From: Rhodospirillaceae bacterium
GTDB taxonomy: Bacteria; Pseudomonadota; Alphaproteobacteria; Bin65
Assembly (NCBI GenBank): GCA_011523655.1
Contig: WTGH01000068.1
Location: 1-64,000 of the forward strand
Direction of reading: 5' to 3'
Length of the DNA: 64,000 nt
Shown here: one piece after another, positions 10,541 through 12,330 of the stretch
How the letters are laid out: every line of letters begins with the position of its first letter
Numbering within the stretch: the stretch's first letter is position 1
Notes under the pieces: generated by a model
Seen by the model: the letters and a program-made list of their open reading frames with translations, nothing else
Told to the model about the DNA's origin: nothing
Databases searched by the model: none
Translations under genes and position numbers: made by a program

Positions 10541-10709
10541 CCGCCGCCGCTACTGGCTGGCCCAGACGATCCGGTGGATGAATTCGATCTCTTCGCGCTC
10601 CAGGCTGCGGTCGTCGTGCTCGCGGTTGATCGACAGCAGCTCGACCCGGCTCGCCGTCATGCGCTGGACCTCCTTGGCCATCACCTCGCCGCCGGCCGTG
10701 CGGACGACG
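10541..10709 (-). pseudogene. Duplicated 3' end (about 52 codons) of the S24/XRE regulator gene
   Basis: 169 bp matching 11689-11857 with three mismatches; same stop codon and C-terminus (LSINREHDDRSLEREEIEFIHRIVWASQ). Confidence 0.9.
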
Positions 10710-10717
10710 GCCTTCCT

Positions 10718-11539
10718 TCAGCTATCGTCGCTGGCGTCCCGGTCGGCGGGAGTATCCCTCTGAAGCGGAGAAACGAGGCCGTCGATATGCTCGAACAAGT
10801 CGTCCGAAATGCTTTGCCGCATCGGATCGAGGATGAACTCGACGCCTTCGCGGCGCGCAAACTTGGCCGCCGGTACGAAATCGCTGTCCCCCGTTACGAG
10901 GATAATGGTGTCCGCCTGCCTTTTCAGGGCAAGGGACGCTATATCGAGCCCGATCCGCATATCGACCCCCTTTTGACGCAAGCCCAAAGCTACATTTCCC
11001 GCATCCAGGCTTCGCCAAGCGGCAATCAGTTTTTCGAATTCCCGGGAACGGTCTTCGGAGAGCGGCGGCGGCGGAACGTCCCGAGCATGCAGGTAATCAT
11101 CCAGGATGGAAAGCCATTCCCCGGTTTTCACCAATTGCTTTGTCAGTCTCGACGATATCTGCCAGTCGCCTTCCTTGACCACCTTGCCCAGACGAAGAGC
11201 GAATTTTCTTTTGCGGCGGAGAGCGTTGAATAATTCTCGCCGGAATGCCGCTTGATCGGTTGTGCCGAACGATATCCGGCGGTTGAGGACAGGATGGTGA
11301 GATACGCCTTCATAGGGCGATGCATCGTAATAGAAGAGGCGGTAGACATGATCGAGCCAACGGCTTTCCTGCGCAGACCGCGGTTCGCCGATCAGTCTTT
11401 GGACATGGCGTTTGCACAGAATTCTGGCGGTGTCGGCAACGGCGTCGGGGTTATCGCGAAATTTCGGTTCAACGACCTTCGGTAAGCGCTTGAGAAAGAA
11501 CCCTCCGTCGATCAGCACGGCGATACGCCGTATCCTCAT
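10718..11539 (-). CDS. NYN domain (LabA/DUF88-like, PIN-fold) protein
   Basis: MRIRRIAVLIDGGFFLKRL...; VDMRIGLDIASLALKRQADTIILVTGDSDFVPAAKFARREGVEFILDPM. Confidence 0.88.
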   Translation of the reverse strand: MRIRRIAVLIDGGFFLKRLPKVVEPKFRDNPDAVADTARILCKRHVQRLIGEPRSAQESRWLDHVYRLFYYDASPYEGVSHHPVLNRRISFGTTDQAAFRRELFNALRRKRKFALRLGKVVKEGDWQISSRLTKQLVKTGEWLSILDDYLHARDVPPPPLSEDRSREFEKLIAAWRSLDAGNVALGLRQKGVDMRIGLDIASLALKRQADTIILVTGDSDFVPAAKFARREGVEFILDPMRQSISDDLFEHIDGLVSPLQRDTPADRDASDDS

Positions 11540-11697
11540 GGCTCCGGACCGCATCGAAAACAAAAAGCCCCAAGCTTTCGGCGCACGCTCGGGATAAGGG
11601 AGCGGGCGTACTCGCTTGAGGCGGATACCCGTCGAACCTAATACGCGTCGGGACGGATTTCAACGGACTGTTCCGATTGGCGGTCGCGCCGCCGCCG

Positions 11698-12330
11698 CTA
11701 CTGGCTCGCCCAGACGATCCGGTGGATGAACTCGATCTCTTCGCGCTCCAGGCTGCGGTCGTCGTGCTCGCGGTTGATCGACAGCAGCTCGACCCGGCTC
11801 GCCGTCATGCGCTGGACCTCCTTGGCCATCACCTCGCCGCCGGCGGTGCGGACGACGACCCGGTCGCCGCGCCGCACGCTGGCGTCGGGCGAAACCACGA
11901 TGCGGTCGCCGTCGCGATAGACCGGCGCCATGCTGTCGCCGGAAATCTCCAGCGCATAGGCGAAGCGGCCGCCCTGGTCGGGGAAATCGACTTCGTCCCA
12001 CCCCCCGCCGGTCGGGTAGCCGGCATCGTCGAAATAGCCCGCCTCGCCGGCCTGGGCGTGGCCGATCAGCGGAATCCGCCGCACCGGCAGGTCCCCGTCC
12101 GCGCCCTGGAGCAGGGCCATGAACTCGTCGAGCGACGCGCCGGTCGCCTTGAGGACTTTCGATACGCTCTCCGTCGACGGCCAGCGCTGCCGGCCGTTCG
12201 GCATGATCCGCTTGCTCTTGTTGAAGGTCGTCGGATCGAGCCCGGCGCGGCGCGCCAGGCCGGACGCCGACATGCCGTATTTCTTTGCGAGCCGGTCGAT
12301 CGCATCCCAGACGTCGCTGTGGGTCAACAT
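11698..12330 (-). CDS. XRE-type HTH / S24 (LexA-like) phage-repressor-type regulator
   Basis: N-terminal HTH (YGMSASGLARRAGLDPTTFNKSKR), C-terminal S24 signature (ALEISGDSMAPVYRDGDRIVVSPDASVRRGDRVVVR). Confidence 0.9.
   Translation of the reverse strand: MLTHSDVWDAIDRLAKKYGMSASGLARRAGLDPTTFNKSKRIMPNGRQRWPSTESVSKVLKATGASLDEFMALLQGADGDLPVRRIPLIGHAQAGEAGYFDDAGYPTGGGWDEVDFPDQGGRFAYALEISGDSMAPVYRDGDRIVVSPDASVRRGDRVVVRTAGGEVMAKEVQRMTASRVELLSINREHDDRSLEREEIEFIHRIVWASQ

What the first reader, a model, noticed from the sequence alone, without database searches (positions are those of the whole stretch)
10541..12330. NYN nuclease cassette inserted at the 3' end of an S24/XRE regulator, with a 169-bp duplication of the regulator's terminus
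Seen directly: 10541-10709 matches 11689-11857 with only three mismatches, including the shared stop codon and some 3' flank. The roughly 1-kb segment between the copies holds essentially one gene, a NYN/PIN-fold nuclease whose stop lies 9 bp from the distal copy. No integrase or transposase is visible. This looks like cargo that entered at the 3' end of a repressor gene and regenerated that end, as site-specific integrating elements do, but with a single-gene payload. The S24 regulator plus NYN nuclease could act as a damage- or phage-responsive effector switch. Inference: alternatives are homologous recombination with a related locus, or tandem duplication followed by deletion.
Basis: partly seen in the sequence, partly recalled or inferred. 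Interest (0 to 1): 0.82.

Follow-up and report, generated by a model that had tools for sequence, protein, structure and literature searches.

The report
Mobile RNA-led NYN nuclease cassette
A small foreign cassette, made of a promoter, a folded RNA ending in a terminator and one RNA-cutting enzyme gene, inserted behind a repressor gene and duplicated the repressor's end; the same folded RNA sits in front of this enzyme family across many bacteria and phages and is barely described, so it probably controls or neutralises the enzyme.

Summary
The duplication is real (174 bp, 97.7%). Related genomes settle the history: four congeners keep the empty site, while a second species (G002) shares the insertion, so this is neither an assembly artefact nor a fixed ancestral block. 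The 974-bp insert (57% GC, against 68% for the window) is more than one gene. It holds its own promoter-like site, a ~65-nt structured RNA ending in a terminator-like stem plus U-run (11559-11629, minus strand), and the NYN nuclease.

The RNA is the main find. Its pairs covary strongly, including in held-out sequences. It precedes the NYN gene in every relative tested outside the model set (38/38 genome loci) and in 22/25 viral loci. It joins two orphans: Rfam's staphylococcal TEG147 RNA, which lies directly upstream of a NYN gene in a viral contig, and PHROG 5783 (function unknown). About half of the genome relatives sit inside type III-like restriction-modification operons.

Best reading: a mobile RNA-nuclease module that works like a type III toxin-antitoxin or attenuated defence gene, acquired by insertion with long target duplication. 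The site-specific integration and S24-NYN switch ideas are not supported. RNA function, toxicity and defence are inferred, not shown.

The parts
11698..12330 (-). XRE/S24 (LexA/CI-like) regulator gene, the insertion target; intact
   Evidence: Peptidase_S24 E=1.5e-22; full-length orthologues in about 24 of 61 genomes
11687..11860 (-). Repeat copy 2: the 3' end of the intact S24 gene plus a little flank
10539..10712 (-). Repeat copy 1: displaced S24 tail, joined to the native 3' flank seen in congeners
   Evidence: G001 matches window 8731-10712 without a break and 11692-12666 separately
10713..11686 (-). Inserted DNA (974 bp), found only in G000 and G002 within the genus
   Evidence: 98% over the full length in G002, absent from G001, G004, G005, G006
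11635..11663 (-). Promoter-like site TTGAAA-17-TAGGTT just upstream of the RNA
   Evidence: Read from the sequence; sigma-70-like sites at the same place in half of the relatives. The window's own site is below the scanner's threshold
11559..11629 (-). Conserved structured RNA leader ending in a terminator-like stem and U-run
   Evidence: 83.7 bits, E=4.1e-23 with model R1 (the window is one of its 43 training rows); z=-3.5; covariation
10718..11539 (-). NYN (PIN-like) nuclease gene, 273 aa, PHROG 5783 family
   Evidence: PF01936 E=3e-10; phrog_5783 E=1.8e-71; model pLDDT 87.6, best PDB match MARF1 NYN domain

Best explanation
A mobile, self-contained RNA-nuclease module inserted behind the S24 gene in the common ancestor of G000 and G002. 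SHOWN: the insert holds a ~65-nt conserved structured RNA and one NYN nuclease gene; it landed with a 174-bp target duplication, so the S24 gene stayed whole and a spare tail remains beyond the insert; the same RNA precedes NYN genes of this family across phyla, phages and plasmids. INFERRED: transcription starts at the RNA's 5' end and mostly stops at its terminator, giving a short RNA and little nuclease. The RNA's core (near-invariant AGUA opposite GA between two helices) binds the nuclease, so the RNA acts as an antitoxin or autoregulatory attenuator, and the nuclease is released or expressed under stress or phage attack. It thus works like a type III toxin-antitoxin or a restriction-linked defence gene, with a NYN enzyme in place of ToxN. 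Insertion was probably not site-specific: captures with long duplications survive where the duplication covers a gene end, because the target gene is then kept.
For: Empty sites in four congeners and a shared insert in G002. Tail copies differ by 4/171, no more than from G001 (4-8/168), so the duplicate is the lineage's own. RNA covariation: 96% of cells paired, 10/14 pairs with double changes, 0/500 shuffles; held-out set 97.3%, 13/14. Gene-first link 38/38, 22/25 viral, 12/13 new genomes; RNA-first 7/8 in 395 alphaproteobacteria. TEG147 above its cut-off directly upstream of NYN in L154, and Teg147 is listed as a 60-nt expressed RNA in S. aureus (PMC5826253). Promoter-like sites abut the RNA. 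42/80 genome loci embedded in type III-like R-M operons. Catalytic aspartates invariant among 30 relatives (D11, D193, D199, D218, D220).
Against: No expression, toxicity, RNA-protein binding or phage-resistance data. The RNA is single, without the tandem repeats of type III antitoxins, and the nuclease fold differs. Some strong RNA hits lack NYN. A few NYN loci have an unrelated hairpin instead, which could mean that only a terminator is needed. Only the window has empty sites to prove insertion; the other flanking duplications are few and partly complex.
Confidence: 0.6

Rival explanations
1. The RNA is only a cis-regulatory attenuator: a signal (or the NYN protein itself) controls read-through of the terminator into the nuclease gene, and the RNA has no action in trans.
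For: Leader position and terminator-like 3' end in all relatives; Rfam types TEG147 as Cis-reg; one copy also precedes an integrase gene in L163.
Against: No alternative antiterminator pairing was looked for or found; the near-exclusive tie to one nuclease family argues for a protein partner rather than a general signal.
Confidence: 0.3
2. Homologous integration of a circle, or of a related locus, that already carried an S24 tail next to NYN (a single crossover in the tail) made the duplication.
For: Gives the same product. At clpB in L205 two nested repeats (230 bp and 172 bp) bracket different cargo, which looks like alternative alleles joined in tandem.
Against: No donor with an S24 tail beside NYN was found among the 61 genomes searched; the copies are no more diverged from each other than from G001.
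Confidence: 0.25
3. One reading: an integrase-type element at the S24 3' end, with S24 and NYN forming a damage-responsive switch.
For: Insertion at a gene 3' end with that end kept; NYN is downstream on the same strand. In Escherichia phage ev099 and Proteus phage Brookers a NYN gene follows a LexA-like repressor.
Against: No integrase; a 174-bp repeat rather than a short core; other NYN cassettes lie by unrelated genes (DUF179/AlgH-like, clpB, methyltransferase); own promoter-like site and terminator-like RNA; congeners carry this S24 gene without NYN at the site.
Confidence: 0.06

Closest known systems
Rfam RF03535 TEG147 (S. aureus small RNA, typed Cis-reg)
   Same: Same position upstream of NYN, same layout, AGUA/GAA core and U-run; both TEG147 and the model made here hit the same spot in several phages
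   Different: The window scores 22.6 bits, below the 56.1 cut-off; the Rfam entry is staphylococcal and its NYN link was not mentioned in the passages found in the three held papers that name it
Type III toxin-antitoxin systems (ToxIN, CptIN, TenpIN)
   Same: Promoter, structured RNA, terminator, ribonuclease-type gene in that order
   Different: RNA is not a tandem repeat and the nuclease has a NYN rather than ToxN fold; no toxicity shown
Insertion with long target duplication of restriction-modification genes (Nobusato et al. 2000, as cited in PMC3031569 and PMC3874152)
   Same: Long direct repeats, empty site in relatives, no transposase; relatives of the cassette sit in R-M operons
   Different: Payload here is an RNA plus one NYN gene, not a restriction-modification pair
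PHROG 5783 / LabA-like NYN proteins, PADLOC NYN (PDLC01154) and HEC-09
   Same: Same protein family (phrog_5783 E=1.8e-71); weaker PADLOC matches (E=2.5e-6 and 0.0017)
   Different: No leader RNA found described for them in the papers searched; PHROG function is unknown

Membership tests
NYN (PIN-like) nuclease | NYN domain above the Pfam cut-off | tested here: met
   PF01936 41.2 bits against 24.2
NYN (PIN-like) nuclease | Conserved acidic active-site residues | tested here: met
   D11, D193, D199, D218, D220 invariant among 30 relatives; role in catalysis from knowledge of the fold
NYN (PIN-like) nuclease | RNA cleavage | not testable with these tools
   Needs an enzyme assay
Rfam TEG147 | Score above the gathering cut-off | tested here: not met
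   Window 22.6 bits against 56.1; relatives L154 80.9 and L169 56.3 meet it
Type III toxin-antitoxin | RNA upstream of the toxin with a terminator between | tested here: met
   (layout only, by prediction)
Type III toxin-antitoxin | Antitoxin RNA made of tandem repeats | tested here: not met
   Single unit upstream of NYN in the window and relatives
Type III toxin-antitoxin | ToxN/AbiQ-fold toxin | tested here: not met
   NYN domain; best solved structure is the MARF1 NYN domain
Type III toxin-antitoxin | Toxicity neutralised by the RNA | not testable with these tools
   Needs expression tests
Insertion with long target duplication | Long direct repeats around the insert and an empty site in relatives | tested here: met
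Insertion with long target duplication | Payload is a restriction-modification unit | tested here: not met
   Only RNA plus NYN here; 42/80 relatives lie inside type III-like R-M operons
Site-specific integrating element at a gene 3' end | Integrase in or beside the insert | tested here: not met
   No such gene in the 974-bp insert
Site-specific integrating element at a gene 3' end | Same attachment gene reused | tested here: not met
   Other NYN loci lie by unrelated genes; no other S24 locus examined has a second tail
Bulged-G (sarcin-ricin/loop E) RNA module | 5'-AGUA opposite 5'-GAA (or GAC) between two helices | tested here: inconclusive
   AGUA in 60/63; opposite strand GAA 40, GAC 8, GAG 7, GAT 4 of 63; the consensus is from own knowledge and no 3D test was made

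The most novel reading that the evidence does not exclude
RNA plus NYN is a widespread, undescribed RNA-toxin module of bacteria and their phages. A single small RNA whose core imitates the bulged-G fold of the ribosomal sarcin-ricin loop holds a NYN nuclease in check until phage attack or loss of the RNA. It moves as a stand-alone cassette and as a passenger of restriction-modification operons.
Probability: 0.3. Interest if true: 0.87.

Novelty: new variant of a known kind. Interest (0 to 1): 0.72.

Why it matters
It links a staphylococcal small RNA filed in Rfam, a phage protein family of unknown function and a nuclease found beside restriction systems into one testable RNA-protein unit. If the RNA controls the enzyme in trans, this would be an RNA-toxin class built on a NYN fold, found from Chloroflexota and Verrucomicrobiota to Proteobacteria and the phages of Firmicutes. 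It also gives a clear case, with empty sites, of single-operon capture with a long target duplication, which keeps the target gene intact without an integrase.

Tried and rejected
Assembly artefact: rejected, G002 carries the same insertion. Ancestral block lost elsewhere: less parsimonious, four congeners have the clean empty site. Diverged donor tail: not supported by the tail distances. Terminal inverted repeats at the insert ends: none seen by reading. S24 tail as a hot spot with other cargo: no second tail at the other S24 loci examined. RNA already known to Rfam: no hit above cut-off in the window or 12 relatives. The clpB case L190 as a second clean insertion: withdrawn, since a nested 230-bp repeat makes it complex and its one congener gives no empty site. 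Searches without yield: plasmid DNA search with the leader; RF03535 in own and control genomes; a paper search on LabA that returned asthma drugs; papers on type III toxin-antitoxin plus NYN (none); literature for PADLOC's HEC-09 (not found).

Full report
OBSERVATION. The 169-bp duplication is real; extended it is 174 nt, 10539-10712 and 11687-11860, 97.7% identical. It holds the last ~160 nt of the S24 gene (11698-12330, minus), its stop and a little flank. NYN (10718-11539, minus) lies between the copies. Pfam supports both genes. The insert is 57.3% GC against 67.6% for the window; NYN GC3 is 0.65, S24 0.92.

HISTORY FROM RELATIVES. The window's assembly (G000) has six congeners in the collection. 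G002 (about 95% identical here) carries the same insert, 974 bp, 98%, same borders. G001, G003, G004 and G005 have a single tail; in G001 and G003 it is joined to the very flank that in the window adjoins copy 1. So copy 1 is the displaced original tail, copy 2 completes the S24 gene, and 10713-11686 is new. Over about 170 nt the window's copies differ by 4, and from G001 by 4-8: the duplicated tail is the lineage's own. In G002 copy 1 has picked up a further stop codon. No other S24 locus examined has a second tail.

THE INSERT IS NOT JUST A GENE. Comparing the DNA upstream of 80 NYN relatives from public genomes showed a conserved ~65-nt element before the start codon. In the window it is 11559-11629 (minus). 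It folds into a long hairpin with an internal loop and ends in a GC-rich stem plus U-run; z=-3.5, no shuffle as stable. On 43 sequences the structure has 96% of cells paired, 10/14 pairs with changes on both sides, 0/500 shuffles reaching it, and slid controls at 16-55%. A covariance model built from these was then used on 63 matches not in it: 97.3% paired, 13/14 pairs with double changes, with the caveat that this alignment is fitted to the model.

HOW TIGHT IS THE LINK. Gene first: 38/38 genome loci outside the training set with upstream DNA available; 22/25 viral loci; 12/13 genomes of an independent search of 399 Proteobacteria, one of them weak; several named phages and a Xanthomonas plasmid. 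RNA first: 7 of 8 hits in 395 alphaproteobacteria, the window's own included, are followed by NYN. In 399 Proteobacteria there were 14 hits above 45 bits besides the window: 9 intact NYN, 1 NYN fragment, 1 before an HTH-ImmA/DUF4411 operon, 1 before a DUF2281 gene, 2 with nothing obvious; weaker hits are mostly chance. NYN loci that lack the motif (phages ev099 and Brookers, an Aeromonas plasmid, others) have a different hairpin plus U-run at the same place.

LINK TO A KNOWN RNA. Rfam TEG147 gives 22.6 bits in the window, below its cut-off of 56.1, but 52.6 in Streptococcus phage Javan85 and 80.9 in viral contig L154, directly upstream of a NYN gene. Teg147 is listed as a 60-nt RNA expressed in S. 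aureus (PMC5826253) and as lying on a genomic island (PMC3053349). The NYN link was not mentioned in the passages found in the three held papers that name it, and no held paper pairs type III toxin-antitoxin with NYN. Absence from this library is not proof of novelty.

CONTEXT. 42 of 80 genome loci have a ResIII-type helicase just upstream and/or a type III methyltransferase just downstream. In phages NYN sits with repressor and integrase genes. This is the company of defence and mobile-element genes.

PROMOTER AND CORE. In half of the relatives a sigma-70-like site scores 9/12 or more (6% in shuffles), and its -10 box mostly ends 3-6 nt before the RNA, so the RNA is probably the first thing transcribed. 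The window has TTGAAA-17-TAGGTT at 11663-11635, too weak for the general scanner. The internal loop is AGUA (60/63) opposite GAA/GAC/GAG/GAT. From own knowledge this matches the bulged-G module of the sarcin-ricin loop; that NYN enzymes act on that loop is speculation.

PROTEIN. The NYN model is confident (pLDDT 87.6) and its best solved match is the MARF1 NYN domain (E=8e-4, TM 0.68 over the target). The expected acidic residues are invariant.

HOW IT GOT THERE. Direct repeats of 100 nt or more bracketing NYN within 1.5 kb: 3/113 loci against 0/906 control placements (p=0.0013). L127 duplicates 333 bp of the end of a DUF179/AlgH-like gene. L134 and L190 are complex; L190 has a nested 230-bp repeat. 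L087 duplicates 43 bp of the start of a methyltransferase gene. The numbers are small and only the window has empty sites. R-M genes are reported to insert with long, variable target duplications (PMC3031569). Inference: survivors are those whose duplication covers a gene end, so no site-specific enzyme is needed.

MECHANISM. Most likely a short RNA that ends at its own terminator and restrains a NYN nuclease, either by binding it or by limiting read-through. Anatomy, conservation and insertion are shown; control of the enzyme, toxicity and defence are inferred.

Noticed in passing
window 7674-8706: A HEPN (RiboL-PSP-like) gene with a small upstream ORF rich in YPG repeats is present only in G000 of the congeners; the phasin to S24 stretch looks like a small accessory-gene hot spot.
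   Followed up: partly
window 9861-10472: A VapBC toxin-antitoxin pair next to copy 1 is also in G001 and G002, partial in G003, and absent from G004 and G005.
   Followed up: partly
window 19488-19622; also 47404-47523 with 54972-55091: Dispersed repeats of about 120-140 bp, some in inverted orientation; the first has copies at several places in congeners, like a MITE.
   Followed up: no
L163:3934-4000: A second leader RNA copy (TEG147 45.6 bits) sits directly before a phage integrase gene next to an RNA-NYN unit.
   Followed up: partly
L232:3182-5094: A strong RNA hit precedes an HTH-ImmA plus DUF4411 (PIN-like) gene pair instead of NYN; L233 has one before a DUF2281 gene beside what looks like a CRISPR array.
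   Followed up: partly
L205:8609-12386: Nested repeats (230 bp at the pnp end, 172 bp of the clpB end) bracket NYN and two other genes, as if alternative alleles had been joined in tandem.
   Followed up: partly
L046:10707-12319: G003 has a different RNA-NYN unit elsewhere, where the NYN open frame runs to 535 codons, perhaps a fusion.
   Followed up: no
L139, L140, L145, L165, L173, L178: NYN genes without the conserved motif have an unrelated hairpin plus U-run in the same position.
   Followed up: partly
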